Below, one piece after another: positions 36,579-39,884 of a stretch of 64,000 bases of DNA (position 1 is the first letter of the stretch; every line of letters starts with the position of its first letter). Under the pieces are notes generated by a model. It searched no databases. It was not told where the DNA came from and was given only the letters and a program-made list of their open reading frames with translations. The DNA lies in contig NZ_WMIC01000002.1 of NCBI RefSeq assembly GCF_009711135.1, positions 1-64,000 on the forward strand, in the 5' to 3' direction. The translations under genes and the position numbers were made by a program. This DNA is from Flavobacterium sp. LC2016-01 (lineage in GTDB: Bacteria; Bacteroidota; Bacteroidia; Flavobacteriales; Flavobacteriaceae).

Positions 36579-36610
36579 AAAAAGCTGGCAGATTTCTCTG
36601 CCAGCTTTTT
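36579..36610 (-). terminator. Terminator after the 61-residue secreted protein gene
   Basis: Perfect 14-bp stem AAAAAGCTGGCAGA/TCTGCCAGCTTTTT (loop TTTC). Confidence 0.9.
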
Positions 36611-36675: not shown

Positions 36676-36861
36676 TTATTTTTGAGTTTTTGCAGCTTCT
36701 GGCTTAGCTGCCTCTGCTTTTTTAGCTTTTTTATCAGCTTTTTTGTCTTTTTTAGGAGCTTTAGCTTCTTTTGCTGGAGCTGTTTGAGCTGGAGTTGTTT
36801 GAGCGTTTACCATTGCTACTGTTCCTAGAACAGCTACTGCTAACATTATTACTTTTTTCAT
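36676..36861 (-). CDS. Small exported Lys/Ala-rich protein, paralog A
   Basis: 61 residues from the ATG at 36861 (MKKVIMLAVAVLG); an in-frame ATG at 36918 is upstream of the promoter -7 box and is rejected. Signal peptide ends MVNAQ. The mature 40 residues are almost only A, K, P, T, E and D (APKKDKKADKKAKKAEAAKP), strongly basic and probably disordered. It is clearly paralogous to the two genes at 39178 and 39419. In composition and size it resembles E. coli acid shock protein Asr, which is also under two-component control. It lies just downstream of the sensor kinase gene with its own promoter. Function inferred only. Confidence 0.8.
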   Translation of the reverse strand: MKKVIMLAVAVLGTVAMVNAQTTPAQTAPAKEAKAPKKDKKADKKAKKAEAAKPEAAKTQK

Positions 36862-36903
36862 AATTTTAAATTTTTTGCTGATTATTGTTTCATTATTATA
36901 CTT

Positions 36904-36911
36904 CAAAGATA
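36904..36911 (-). promoter_or_regulatory. -7 box of small-protein gene A
   Basis: Minus-strand TATCTTTG fits TAnnTTTG; it sits 43 nt before the ATG at 36861. No -33 TTG is present; its place is taken by the direct repeat at 36918-36939. Confidence 0.65.
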
Positions 36912-36917
36912 GAATCA

Positions 36918-36939
36918 CAAAATGAAGATTAAATGAAGA
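36918..36939 (-). promoter_or_regulatory. 11-bp direct-repeat operator upstream of small-protein gene A
   Basis: Plus-strand CAAAATGAAGA then TTAAATGAAGA: ATGAAG at 36922 and 36933, exactly 11 bp apart, the spacing of OmpR/PhoB-type sites. It ends 6 bp from the -7 box. The same arrangement occurs at 39675-39695. Confidence 0.65.
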
Positions 36940-36965
36940 TTGAATGCATCTGAAAAAATTAACTT

Positions 36966-38303
36966 TTAATTATGTTTTACACCTTCAGGAAGCAGTAATG
37001 TAAAGGTTGTTCCTTCATTTACTTTTGAAACAACTTTGATTTCGATATGATGAAAAGAAGCAATACTTTCAGCAATAGCAAGTCCTAAACCCTGCCCGTC
37101 TTGATCTGAACTGATTCTGGCGAACCTATTAAATATTTTTTCAAGATGTGCCTCACTCATTCCGAGTCCGGAATCTGTTATTGAAATAAAATAACGGCCT
37201 TTTTCAAAACCATCTTCAATGCTTATATTTCCTTGCGGGCGATTGTATTTTATTGCATTGGTAACCAAATTGTAAATCAAAATATGAATTAGCGTTTTAT
37301 TTCCGGTAAAAGCATATTCCTGTTTCATACGATTTTCAAAATGAATTTCGCGATCTTCCATTCGGTCTTGAAAATCTGACTGCAGATCATCAATAATTTC
37401 ATGAAAATTTATTTTCTCATTTGCCTCATATTGATTGTTTTCAATACGGGAAATCAGCAATAAATTATTTATGATTTTTTTGAGCATATCCAGCGTCTTC
37501 AATGAGCCTGCAATTTTATCTACCGCATTATCATCTAAAGATTCATTCTGTAATAAATTTTCAAATTTGTTTTTCAATAATGCAATTGGCGTCAGCAATT
37601 CATGAGAAACATTGGAAATAAATTGTTTTTCTTTTTTGAAAAGCTCCGCAATTCGATCCATCATTTGATTTAAAACCAAATCCAGTTCTCTAAAATCTCT
37701 AGATTTTGCTTTTATTGGTGTATGATCAAAAGCTTCAGGTTCGTTGACACGCCTTATTTTTGTATCAATAATTTTATAAAAGGGCTTGAGAAGATATTCA
37801 ATATAAACAGTATCGGCCAAAAAAGTAACGAGCAGAATCACGACTAAAACTATAATAATAAAGAACCTGATAATAAACGTAAGGTCGTTTACTTCGCTCA
37901 AACTGCTGCCAATTTCCAGCTGATAACCTTGATTTTCGTAGGTAAAATGATATTGCAGAATTCGATATTCATTTTCTTCTCCTTCAATAATTCGGTATTC
38001 GTTATTAAAGAATGTTTTTTTCTCATTTCCTTTTACAGGAATCTTTGACAGCACAAGAAATTCGCTGTGCAAAGTAGAAAACTGAGAATACGTTTCGGTC
38101 GAATCATCAGCATCTTCAATAAAATCATTGATTTCATTTTGATTCAAATGATCTATAAATTTTTTCTTTTTTTCAATCAGCCCATTATTAATATGTCTGT
38201 ACACGACATTTTCGACTAAAATTGGCAGCATCAGCCATAAAACCAAAATCACCAACAAACGTGTCAGTGCATTAAAAATCGCTAATTGGTGTTTTATCTT
38301 CAC
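36966..38303 (-). CDS. Sensor histidine kinase
   Basis: 445 residues: helix (about 12-32), extracytoplasmic sensor domain (about 33-142), second helix (about 143-163), linker, dimerisation domain with phospho-acceptor ISNVSHELLTPIALLKNK (about 233-250; HELLTP instead of HELRTP), and ATPase domain with NLVTNAIKYN, DSGLGMS and GQGLGLAIAES. It signals to the response regulator directly upstream (12 bp gap). Signal unknown. Both neighbouring transcription units encode small exported basic proteins. Confidence 0.95.
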   Translation of the reverse strand: MKIKHQLAIFNALTRLLVILVLWLMLPILVENVVYRHINNGLIEKKKKFIDHLNQNEINDFIEDADDSTETYSQFSTLHSEFLVLSKIPVKGNEKKTFFNNEYRIIEGEENEYRILQYHFTYENQGYQLEIGSSLSEVNDLTFIIRFFIIIVLVVILLVTFLADTVYIEYLLKPFYKIIDTKIRRVNEPEAFDHTPIKAKSRDFRELDLVLNQMMDRIAELFKKEKQFISNVSHELLTPIALLKNKFENLLQNESLDDNAVDKIAGSLKTLDMLKKIINNLLLISRIENNQYEANEKINFHEIIDDLQSDFQDRMEDREIHFENRMKQEYAFTGNKTLIHILIYNLVTNAIKYNRPQGNISIEDGFEKGRYFISITDSGLGMSEAHLEKIFNRFARISSDQDGQGLGLAIAESIASFHHIEIKVVSKVNEGTTFTLLLPEGVKHN

Positions 38304-38315
38304 AAGTTTACTTTT

Positions 38316-38990
38316 TTATTCGCTTATGCGATAACCCACATTTCGAACCGTTTCAAACCAATCTATAGATCTATGTTTATCTAATTTTTTTCGGAGGTTA
38401 CGAACGTGAACATCTATAAAATTGGAATCAGAATTAACTTCAAGTATATCGCCCCAAATATGCTCTGTTAGTTGAAGTCTGGTAATAACTCGGTTTTTAT
38501 TCAAAACCAAATACTGAAAAATATCAAACTCTTTTTTGGTCAAACTCAGCGGCACGTCGTTATAAGTGACTTTATAATCCTGAAGCTGCAGCAAAAATCC
38601 ATGAATACTCAAACTATTTACTGTAAAACCATGCATTCTGCGAATCACAGCGAACAATCTCGCACTAAGTTCCGTTAGCGCAAAAGGTTTCGTCAAATAA
38701 TCGTCGGCACCTAAATGAAGACCATTTATTCTGTCATCTAGTTCACCGCGGGCGGTGAGCACAATTACAGCCATTTTTGATTTTGTTTTTCGAACGGCAC
38801 TTAAGACCTCAAAGCCATCGCCGTCTGGCAAACCCAAATCAAGCAACATTGCGTCATAATCATTGCTAGCGACTTCTTCGAGAGCGTCATTGCAGGTATG
38901 CGTTATTTTACAAACATAACCTGCATTGCACAAAAAGTCGTAAACTTCTGCAGCAAGTTCTTTATTATCTTCAACAATCAAAATATTCAT
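38316..38990 (-). CDS. OmpR/PhoB-family response regulator
   Basis: 224 residues from the ATG at 38990 (MNILIVEDNKELA); a start 21 nt upstream would give a non-conserved extension. Receiver domain (1-115) with acidic pocket EDN, phospho-acceptor Asp in MLLDLGLPDG (about 51), and conserved Thr and Lys (VLTARG, LTKPFA). Winged-helix DNA-binding domain (about 130-224) ending in VRNVGYRIS. Probably regulates the small-protein genes, whose promoters carry 11-bp repeats. Operon with the kinase. Confidence 0.95.
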   Translation of the reverse strand: MNILIVEDNKELAAEVYDFLCNAGYVCKITHTCNDALEEVASNDYDAMLLDLGLPDGDGFEVLSAVRKTKSKMAVIVLTARGELDDRINGLHLGADDYLTKPFALTELSARLFAVIRRMHGFTVNSLSIHGFLLQLQDYKVTYNDVPLSLTKKEFDIFQYLVLNKNRVITRLQLTEHIWGDILEVNSDSNFIDVHVRNLRKKLDKHRSIDWFETVRNVGYRISE

Positions 38991-39064
38991 AAATACAGCT
39001 ATTAAGCGCAATTAAATTTAAGCAATTTTAAAAAACCCTGTTGCGCATTATTAAAAAATTAACG

Positions 39065-39102
39065 AACAAAAAAAGCTGACAAATTTCTTCATCAGCCTTT
39101 TC
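39065..39102 (-). terminator. Probable terminator after small-protein genes B and C
   Basis: Minus strand: GGCTGA ... TCAGC followed by a T7 run. A short stem with a 12-nt loop, weaker than the others here. Confidence 0.55.
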
Positions 39103-39177
39103 CAACCGCATTCTCCATAAACCATTATTTCTATTTTGTTTCCTTACAATGCATCGAAAACAAATCAAAAACAATCC

Positions 39178-39369
39178 TTATTTTTTCATAGTCGCTTCTG
39201 TTTTTGGAGCTTCAGTTTTTGCTGATTTTTCTTTTTTATCAGACTTGTGATTATGGTGTTTAGTTGCTTTTACCTCTTTTGCCGGTGCAGCCTGAGTTGG
39301 CGCAGTTTGAGCATTCACCATTGCACTTGTTCCTAAAATCAATACCGCTGCCATTAATAAATTTTTCAT
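39178..39369 (-). CDS. Small exported Lys-rich protein, paralog B
   Basis: 63 residues. Signal peptide MKNLLMAAVLILGTSAMVNAQ, then a basic tail with KATKHHNHKSDKKEKSAK. The signal peptide and tail layout match paralogs A and C. Histidines in the middle could bind metal or respond to pH. Only 49 bp after paralog C and without its own clear promoter, so probably cotranscribed with it. Function unknown. Confidence 0.78.
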   Translation of the reverse strand: MKNLLMAAVLILGTSAMVNAQTAPTQAAPAKEVKATKHHNHKSDKKEKSAKTEAPKTEATMKK

Positions 39370-39418
39370 GATTTCTAATTTTTAAATTATTATTTTTTAT
39401 TCTCTTAAGTTGTTTTTC

Positions 39419-39619
39419 TTATTTTTTTACTTTTGCTGTTTCAGCTTTTTTTGGAGCTTCACTTTTTACTGATTTTGTTTTTTTATCAGTTTTGCTTTTT
39501 GACTGTTTTGTTGCTTTAATTTCTTTTACAGGAACTGTTTTACCATCTTTTGCAGGAAACGCATGAACCATTGCGCTTGTTCCTAAAACTGCCACTAATA
39601 CCATCAATAAATTTCTCAT
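39419..39619 (-). CDS. Small exported Lys-rich protein, paralog C
   Basis: 66 residues. Signal MRNLLMVLVAVLGTSAMVHA, then a very basic tail (KATKQSKSKTDKKTKSVKSE). First gene of a B-C pair. Its promoter region has the same -7/direct-repeat arrangement as paralog A. No known domain; low complexity, probably disordered outside the inner membrane. Confidence 0.78.
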   Translation of the reverse strand: MRNLLMVLVAVLGTSAMVHAFPAKDGKTVPVKEIKATKQSKSKTDKKTKSVKSEAPKKAETAKVKK

Positions 39620-39660
39620 GATTTCTAAGATTTAAATTAATTACCTTTTATTTTACAGAT

Positions 39661-39668
39661 CAAAATTA
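39661..39668 (-). promoter_or_regulatory. -7 box of small-protein genes C-B
   Basis: Minus-strand TAATTTTG fits TAnnTTTG, 42 nt before the ATG at 39619. The -33 position is occupied by the direct repeat at 39675-39695. Confidence 0.65.
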
Positions 39669-39674
39669 CCTACG

Positions 39675-39695
39675 CAAAATGAAGACAAAGTGAAG
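39675..39695 (-). promoter_or_regulatory. 11-bp direct-repeat operator upstream of small-protein gene C
   Basis: Plus-strand CAAAATGAAG, one base, CAAAGTGAAG: period 11 bp. It begins 6 bp from the -7 box, exactly as at 36918-36939. Confidence 0.65.
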
Positions 39696-39740
39696 AAATC
39701 CCTGAATAAAATATTTTTAACTAGACATTAACTTTTGCTG

Positions 39741-39884
39741 TTTTTTTCCACCATATAAGTTATATAAGTTCATTTAATTTAAGGGAATTAAATTAGACGC
39801 ACTGCTGTGCGCCTCTACATTATGCGCCTCTACAGTGCGCACATTGCTAAATTGAACTTATATAACTTATATGGTGGAAAAAAA
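39741..39884. repeat. MITE-like inverted-repeat element before polA
   Basis: Perfect 32-bp terminal inverted repeats (39741-39772 and 39853-39884; core CCACCATATAAGTTATATAA) bound an 80-bp interior with GC-rich partial palindromes (GACGCACTGCTGTGCGCC) and a repeated GCGCCTCTACA word. A 25-nt part of the interior recurs at 54371 with one mismatch. No ORF inside. Non-autonomous mobile or REP-like element inferred. Confidence 0.75.

What the first reader, a model, noticed from the sequence alone, without database searches (positions are those of the whole stretch)
36676..39695. Two-component system flanked by three paralogous tiny exported basic proteins sharing an 11-bp direct-repeat operator
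Seen: three genes (61, 63, 66 residues) with the same signal peptide ending M-V-N/H-A and Lys/Ala/Thr-rich tails surround an OmpR-type regulator and its kinase. Both promoter regions have the same layout on the minus strand: two CTTCAnTTT half-sites 11 bp apart (36918-36939; 39675-39695), exactly 6 bp, then TAnnTTTG (36904-36911; 39661-39668), with no -33 TTG. Known: OmpR/PhoB-family regulators bind 11-bp direct repeats and can replace the -35 element; the E. coli Asr acid-shock protein is a similar small exported basic protein under two-component control. Inferred: this is a self-contained envelope-stress module in which the regulator activates disordered cationic periplasmic proteins. Histidines in paralog B hint at pH or metal.
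Basis: partly seen in the sequence, partly recalled or inferred. Interest (0 to 1): 0.8.

Follow-up and report, generated by a model that had tools for sequence, protein, structure and literature searches.

The report
Self-contained sensor cassette for cationic proteins
A Flavobacterium genome carries a compact block made of a two-component sensor system and three tiny lysine-rich genes with predicted export signals, whose two start sites share one DNA site found nowhere else in that genome at up to one mismatch; the regulator likely binds that site to switch the tiny genes on, which would make this a stress-response unit that carries its own targets.

Summary
Three small paralogous genes (61, 63, 66 codons; predicted signal peptides, net-basic tails) flank an OmpR/PhoB-type regulator and its kinase. 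Both small transcription units start with CTTCANTTT-N2-CTTCANTTT, 7 bp, TAnnTTTG. With up to 2 mismatches that pattern occurs twice in the 5.24-Mb genome, only here. Of 150 genomes of the genus, 40 have the regulator: all 40 carry a site in the locus, against 1 poor match among the 110 without it. Site and gene track each other: downstream of the kinase 40 of 40 loci have both; upstream of the regulator 36 have both, 4 neither. In 20 examined regulator-less genomes the corresponding neighbourhood holds no part of the block, and in 13 the flanking genes polA and metallophosphoesterase are neighbours, so it looks gained or lost as one piece. An extra perfect site precedes an mprF-type gene in one genome; in two genomes a PepSY-like gene takes the upstream slot. 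Best reading: a class-II-activated, near-private regulon of cationic, likely disordered periplasmic proteins, analogous to Asr under RstA but not homologous. Signal and protein function are untested.

The parts
36579..36610 (-). intrinsic terminator after gene A
   Evidence: 14-pair stem plus T run; fold -26.1 kcal/mol, z -6.7
36676..36861 (-). small exported basic protein A (61 aa; tail net +8), downstream of the kinase
   Evidence: a gene of this kind in the same place in 40 of 40 loci (35 caught by the filter, 5 added by eye)
36904..36938 (-). direct-repeat site plus -7 element before gene A (CTTCATTT..TCTTCATTT, TAnnTTTG); 42 bp before the ATG
36966..38303 (-). sensor histidine kinase (445 aa, GTG start); HisKA, HATPase_c; two TM segments and a sensor of about 110 residues between them, read by eye
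   Evidence: PF00512, PF02518; net charge -9 over residues 33-142; Cache/PDC-like model of low confidence
38316..38990 (-). OmpR/PhoB-type response regulator (224 aa)
   Evidence: PF00072, PF00486; C-terminal helix NSDSNFIDVHVRNLR invariant over 14 of the 40 orthologs, those aligned
39066..39105 (-). hairpin terminator after gene B; separates the C-B unit from regulator-kinase
   Evidence: fold -21 kcal/mol, z -6.3, 0 of 200 shuffles as good; not listed by the pattern scan
39178..39369 (-). small exported basic protein B (63 aa; KHHNHK stretch, tail net +6)
39419..39619 (-). small exported basic protein C (66 aa; tail net +11)
39661..39695 (-). direct-repeat site plus -7 element before the C-B unit; 41 bp before the ATG of C

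Best explanation
This is a block of a two-component system and three tiny paralogous genes with predicted signal peptides and lysine-rich tails, in which both small-gene units begin with the same 11-bp direct-repeat site at a fixed distance from a TAnnTTTG promoter element, and the phosphorylated regulator likely binds that site to switch on the small proteins, which are predicted to be cationic disordered periplasmic stress proteins. Mechanism: the kinase would sense an envelope condition with its acidic periplasmic domain and phosphorylate the regulator. A regulator dimer would sit head-to-tail on CTTCAT-N5-CTTCAT. If TAnnTTTG lies at -12 to -5, the two hexamers span -39 to -23, overlapping the -33 region, so the regulator would act as a class II activator in place of a good -33 element. 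Two terminators bound the small-gene units, so in most species kinase and regulator are likely made from their own promoter, at a basal level, while the small proteins are made on demand. Shown here: gene layout, site conservation, spacing, near-uniqueness, co-occurrence, block-wise presence/absence. Inferred: binding, activation, class II geometry, gain/loss as a unit. Weakly inferred: the signal (acid or cationic-peptide/charge stress) and what the proteins do (charge shielding or chaperoning in the periplasm).
For: Site near-unique: 2 hits, both here, in 5.24 Mb with up to 2 mismatches. Genus: with up to 1 mismatch, a site inside the locus in 40 of 40 regulator-positive genomes and a match in 1 of 110 regulator-negative ones; the reversed-pattern control gave 1 hit in 150. 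Site-gene tracking: downstream 40 of 40 both; upstream 36 both, 4 neither, none with only one. Fixed site-to-ATG distance: 61 of 70 measured lie at 41-47 bp. Alignment of the A promoter in 40 loci, anchored on the kinase stop and not on the pattern, shows the half-sites and TAnnTTTG among its most conserved columns. Missing blocks: 0 of 20 regulator-negative neighbourhoods have a hit to regulator, kinase or small gene. C-terminal helix of the regulator invariant over 14 aligned orthologs. Geometry like PhoP: hexamer repeat with 5-nt gap about 12 nt above the -10, class II (PMC3335776, passages). TAHHTTTG at -12 to -5 with start 4-5 nt after (PMC6847099, passages). Terminators. A perfect site before an mprF-type gene in G094 points to envelope charge.
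Against: No binding, expression or phenotype data. The genomes are related, so 40 of 40 is not 40 independent trials; a one-gene tree gives about 9 changes of state. The 76- and 78-site tallies were collected with the pattern itself; one upstream site has 3 mismatches (L060) and one an 8-bp gap (L086). Half of the sites hold a TTG at 17 bp, so the box does not everywhere stand in for a missing -33. Repression cannot be excluded. The 20 negative neighbourhoods are a choice of 107, and kinase and small genes were not sought elsewhere in negative genomes. The small proteins' function rests on composition; no disorder or signal-peptide predictor was run. The sensor model is weak (mean pLDDT 74, no PDB match at E<=0.001).
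Confidence: 0.7

Rival explanations
1. The small exported proteins are ligands: processed peptides bind the kinase's acidic sensor and drive (or shut off) their own synthesis, as in a peptide-pheromone or CpxP/MgrB-like feedback loop (these models recalled).
For: In the window's genome the only strong sites are those of the small genes; the sensor is net acidic in 39 of 40 kinases (residues 33-142, -3 to -11; L077 is 0) and the tails are basic (+5 to +14 in 79 filter-caught proteins); a KE pair in the tail (K31, E32) is invariant in 20 aligned rows.
Against: The sensor is not hypervariable: mean identity to the window's protein 73%, against 67% for the ATPase domain, over 39 orthologs. Extra targets (mprF-type, PepSY-like) do not fit a pure pheromone circuit. 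No peptidase or transporter gene lies in the block.
Confidence: 0.15
2. The repeats are bound by another, unlinked OmpR-family regulator; the linked system is a bystander.
For: Eight further full-length regulators of this type, 28-32% identical, are encoded in the genome; no site lies within about 210 bp before the regulator gene in 38 of 40 loci.
Against: A site lies in the locus in 40 of 40 genomes with this regulator, and a match (a poor one) in 1 of 110 without it; in two genomes a perfect site precedes the regulator gene itself (L088, L090).
Confidence: 0.07
3. The small proteins are metal-binding (His-rich B) and the kinase is a metal sensor of the CusS/CzcS kind.
Against: HH runs in only 2 of 35 downstream proteins, the kind present in every locus, and 1 of 25 of the C kind; the kinase scores 143.4 bits against a cut-off of 292.55 for the heavy-metal kinase model; the structural match is at background level.
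Confidence: 0.1

Closest known systems
E. coli/Salmonella PhoP- and PmrA-type class II activation (OmpR/PhoB family)
   Same: Hexanucleotide direct repeat with 5-nt gap just upstream of the core promoter element, overlapping the -35/-33 region (PMC3335776, passages); the best NCBIfam model for the regulator is PmrA.
   Different: Repeat is CTTCAT, promoter element is the Bacteroidota TAnnTTTG, near-private regulon; the regulator scores 187.3 bits against the PmrA cut-off of 330.
RstA-Asr acid response of E. coli
   Same: An OmpR-family regulator switches on a small exported protein; RstA binds the asr promoter (PMC11135836, passages incl. part of the abstract); Asr is described as an intrinsically disordered chaperone, periplasmic (PMC10746267, passages). 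That Asr is basic is recalled.
   Different: No Asr-family hit in this genome (E. coli control positive); here regulator and targets form one block and the genes come as paralogs.
PorXY of the type IX secretion system
   Same: PorY is the kinase's best NCBIfam model (261.8 bits).
   Different: Below the cut-off of 350; the partner has an OmpR-type DNA-binding domain, unlike PorX (architecture of PorX recalled).

Membership tests
OmpR/PhoB-type response regulator | receiver domain followed by winged-helix Trans_reg_C domain | tested here: met
   PF00072 90.2 bits (cut-off 30.2), PF00486 78.6 bits (cut-off 26.2)
OmpR/PhoB-type response regulator | binds head-to-tail direct repeats of 11-bp period | not testable with these tools
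   repeats of that period are conserved at its presumed targets; binding needs the bench
PmrA (NCBIfam NF007928) | score above curated cut-off | tested here: not met
   187.3 bits against 330
PorY kinase (NCBIfam NF052314) | score above curated cut-off | tested here: not met
   261.8 bits against 350
Asr acid-shock protein (PF06392) | match to the family model | tested here: not met
   0 matches at E<=1 in the whole genome; of 14 control genomes E. coli rings; no Asr among Pfam hits of A, B, C at E<=1
Asr acid-shock protein (PF06392) | induced by low pH | not testable with these tools
   needs expression data
Cache/PDC-type periplasmic sensor | fold match of the sensor domain | tested here: inconclusive
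peptide-pheromone two-component system | sensor domain diverging much faster than the kinase core (criterion recalled) | tested here: not met
   mean identity over 39 orthologs: sensor 73%, ATPase domain 67%, DHp 90%

The most novel reading that the evidence does not exclude
A portable single-purpose signalling cassette: sensor, regulator and practically the whole regulon travel as one 3-kb block, and the block's output is positive charge itself. Tiny disordered polycations fill the periplasm when the acidic sensor domain detects a charge imbalance (acid, cationic peptides, loss of divalent cations), and by binding that acidic domain they close a negative feedback loop.
Probability: 0.2. Interest if true: 0.75.

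Novelty: new variant of a known kind. Interest (0 to 1): 0.56.

Why it matters
To my knowledge few operators of Bacteroidota two-component systems are mapped (recalled, not searched for). Here comparative genomics gives a nearly base-resolved operator, its spacing to the unusual Bacteroidota -7 element, and a near-complete candidate regulon of one regulator, ready for test and for use as a small inducible promoter. It would also show an Asr-like answer (cationic, disordered, exported) evolved apart from enterobacterial Asr and gained or lost together with its own sensor.

Tried and rejected
Wider regulon: a 3-mismatch scan (both strands) of the 40 regulator-positive genomes gave 22 off-locus sites against 8 for the reversed-pattern control (my count of the tables). 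All 22 were looked at (21, G053:C1:1341688). Six precede one PepSY-like exported protein (G000, G015, G042, G052, G053, G054). I do not claim it as a target: of 45 matches I compared the 30 with loci; of the 28 away from the regulator locus, 6 of 26 in regulator-positive genomes have a site with up to 3 mismatches at the expected place, the others are more degenerate, and regulator-negative G060 keeps one with 4 mismatches. One search made the comparison with 17 loci in the wrong orientation and is discarded, except that it shows for G082 a 4-mismatch site that cut off. Three precede a Fur-like gene with a conserved leader that looks like another regulator's; two precede the same long gene (L186, L190) at different distances; one precedes the mprF-type gene; two lie inside long ORFs; the rest look like chance. 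The G056 match lies inside an ORF.

Outside the genus: no ortholog at E<=1e-75 in 299 family genomes (236 genera) except the window's own (more distant forms would be missed). Of the other 79, at 33-43% identity, three (L100, L148, L167) hold a bare pair of CTTCA words at that spacing, none of them beside a small basic gene caught by my filter.

Sensor fold: weak matches only. Asr homology: rejected. Heavy-metal and PorXY assignment: below cut-offs.

Literature: none of the papers listed by searches is about this system by title and abstract start; several listings were only a part of the papers found (e.g. 12 of 168, 8 of 47), and most subscription papers are not held. UniRef names 2 of 55 relatives 'Acid-shock protein', a label without test that I know of.

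Gene calls: a composition filter plus genes added by eye (upstream in L063, L075, L076, L083, L085; downstream in L080, L081, L086, L089, L090).
Full report
What is there. The window lies in a Flavobacterium-type genome (5.24 Mb, 34 contigs; the genus is read from the named relatives). On the minus strand, in transcription order: site 39695-39661, gene C (39619-39419), gene B (39369-39178), a hairpin terminator (39105-39066), the response regulator (38990-38316), the histidine kinase (38303-36966), site 36938-36904, gene A (36861-36676), a terminator (36610-36579). B is 56% identical to C and 55% to A, and the next hit in the genome is E 0.39. The regulator is a standard receiver plus winged-helix protein; the kinase has HisKA and HATPase_c. 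The regulator's nearest eight full-length paralogs are 28-32% identical, so it is not a recent copy.

More than chance. The pattern CTTCANTTTNNCTTCANTTT-N7-TANNTTTG with up to 2 mismatches hits the genome twice, both at this locus; the reversed pattern hits 0 times.

Conservation. Of 150 genus genomes 40 have a regulator ortholog (E<=1e-55; the weakest of the 40 has E 1.4e-107). I fetched 39 loci plus the window. A site scan of the same 150 genomes, up to 1 mismatch, hit 41: the 40 positive genomes, each at least once inside the locus, and G056, whose match lies in an ORF; the reversed-pattern control had 1 hit, in G078. Off-locus matches in positive genomes: 2 (G094:C57, perfect; G053:C1, 1 mismatch). 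In the 40 loci the downstream small gene has a site in 40 of 40; upstream of the regulator 36 loci have a gene with a site (34 small basic, 2 PepSY-like) and 4 have neither (L079, L084, L087, L089). Apart from two further perfect sites right before the regulator in L088 and L090, no other site is seen on the block's strand in these 264,613 bases (up to 3 mismatches, gap 7 or 8; one upstream site with 3 mismatches, one with an 8-bp gap; ten loci had genes added by eye, see Tried and rejected). Of 76 sites taken with up to 2 mismatches, CTTCA is complete on both sides in 76, but these were chosen with the pattern. The alignment of the downstream promoter in all 40 loci, anchored on the kinase stop and not on the pattern, still shows both half-sites and TAnnTTTG among its best-conserved columns. 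Distance from site to ATG: of 76 sites, 70 had a following gene in the filter's list, and 61 of these lie at 41-47 bp. The nine others: 12 (L055, a start called too early), 37, 51 and 54 bp, and five above 2,000 bp, where the gene behind the site was missed by the filter or, at L088:2349, is the regulator itself.

Presence and absence as a block. The metallophosphoesterase gene at the left of the block is found in 147 of 150 genomes. Of the 40 positive loci, 37 have both polA and the metallophosphoesterase at the sides, and each is present in 38; G110 has neither, and in G065 the contig ends behind the block, with the metallophosphoesterase on another contig. I took 20 regulator-negative neighbourhoods, of 107 negative genomes with that gene: 0 of 20 have a hit to regulator, kinase, A, B or C at E<=1e-4. 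In 13 of 20 polA and the metallophosphoesterase are neighbours with no ORF over 150 codons between, at most about 460 bp apart, including G060, G066 and G099, close relatives of the window's species; in the other 7 other genes or a gap of about 1 kb lie there (my reading of the table). Kinase and small genes were not sought elsewhere in negative genomes. A FastTree of the metallophosphoesterase (58 tips: 38 positive, 20 chosen negative) needs 9 changes of state, shuffled labels 16.8 on average, minimum 11: patchy, not a single clade, though one gene and midpoint rooting limit this.

How it likely works. In F. johnsoniae TAHHTTTG lies at -12 to -5, with start sites 4-5 nt after, and the -33 motif is weak (PMC6847099, passages); F. 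psychrophilum gives the same -12 to -5 (PMC9723704, passages). The hexamers CTTCAT-N5-CTTCAT then span -39 to -23, with predicted leaders near 38 nt in the window. This is close to PhoP architecture I: hexamer repeat with 5-nt gap, box about 12 nt above the -10, class II (PMC3335776, passages); here the gap from second hexamer to TA is 10. TTG at 17 bp before TA is present in 38 of 76 sites, inside the repeat; so the box does not simply replace a -33 element everywhere. The regulator-kinase unit has no site within about 210 bp upstream in 38 of 40 loci; L088 and L090 have a perfect one there, so autoregulation looks like a lineage trait.

What the products may do. Tails are short, rich in K, A, T, E, P, net +5 to +14 in 79 filter-caught proteins, with a conserved PAKEVK-like core (K31, E32 invariant in 20 rows). 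A, B and C match no Pfam or NCBIfam family above cut-off and are not Asr. A perfect site precedes an 874-codon MprF-type gene (PF09924 190 bits, PF03706 68.6 bits) in G094, 32 bp from its ATG. MprF modifies phosphatidylglycerol with lysine and is tied to cationic-peptide resistance (PMC2774229, start of abstract in the listing); acid induction of its rhizobial relative lpiA is recalled, with PMC5936775 only seen in that listing. In G065 and G110 the upstream slot holds a PepSY-like exported protein, 37% and 43% identical to the window genome's own one; that own one scores 20.1 bits against a PF11396 cut-off of 28.3. Together this points to envelope charge or acid stress, but no call tests it.

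Sensor. About 110 periplasmic residues by eye; net charge over residues 33-142 is -3 to -11 in 39 of 40 and 0 in L077; an invariant FS.LH.E stretch in 24 rows. The model (mean pLDDT 74) is a helix plus beta-sheet like Cache/PDC sensors, at background Z. Identity to the window's protein: sensor 73%, ATPase domain 67%, receiver 83%, DNA-binding domain 88% on average over 39, so the sensor is under ordinary constraint.

Verdict. The circuit is very likely as proposed (my estimate 0.9); the protein function is a guess with some support (about 0.5). Kind: new variant of a known kind.

Noticed in passing
39740-39884: An inverted repeat (accatataagttatataagtt... and its reverse copy) beside the block; about 20 similar short matches elsewhere in the genome, a REP/MITE-like element.
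   Followed up: no
L175:2336-4957 (G094:C57): MprF-type gene with a perfect copy of the site 32 bp before its ATG, the only perfect off-locus site in 40 genomes.
   Followed up: partly
L083, L085 (G065, G110): A PepSY-like exported protein takes the upstream slot between site and regulator in place of the small basic genes. In G110 the block lies away from polA and the metallophosphoesterase; in G065 it lies beside polA at a contig end.
   Followed up: partly
G000:C4:247346-247891 (L176): A PepSY-like gene of the window's own genome has a 2-mismatch copy of the site 40 bp before its ATG; regulator-negative G060 has a similar sequence, so the link is open.
   Followed up: partly
L088:2349, L090:2349 (oriented loci): A perfect extra site directly before the regulator gene in two genomes, suggesting autoregulation there. 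Positions are in the regulator-forward orientation used in the scripts.
   Followed up: no
L183, L184, L185 (G006, G057, G079): A conserved 3-mismatch look-alike (CTTCATTTCGTGTACATTTGCTTAATGCAATTTTG, with one base different in G079) before a Fur-like gene; probably another regulator's site.
   Followed up: no
PMC10197871 (passages): An OmpR-family response regulator of F. johnsoniae (FJOH_RS14175) was mutated in one line of a coevolution experiment with Burkholderia thailandensis; whether it is this regulator was not determined.
   Followed up: no
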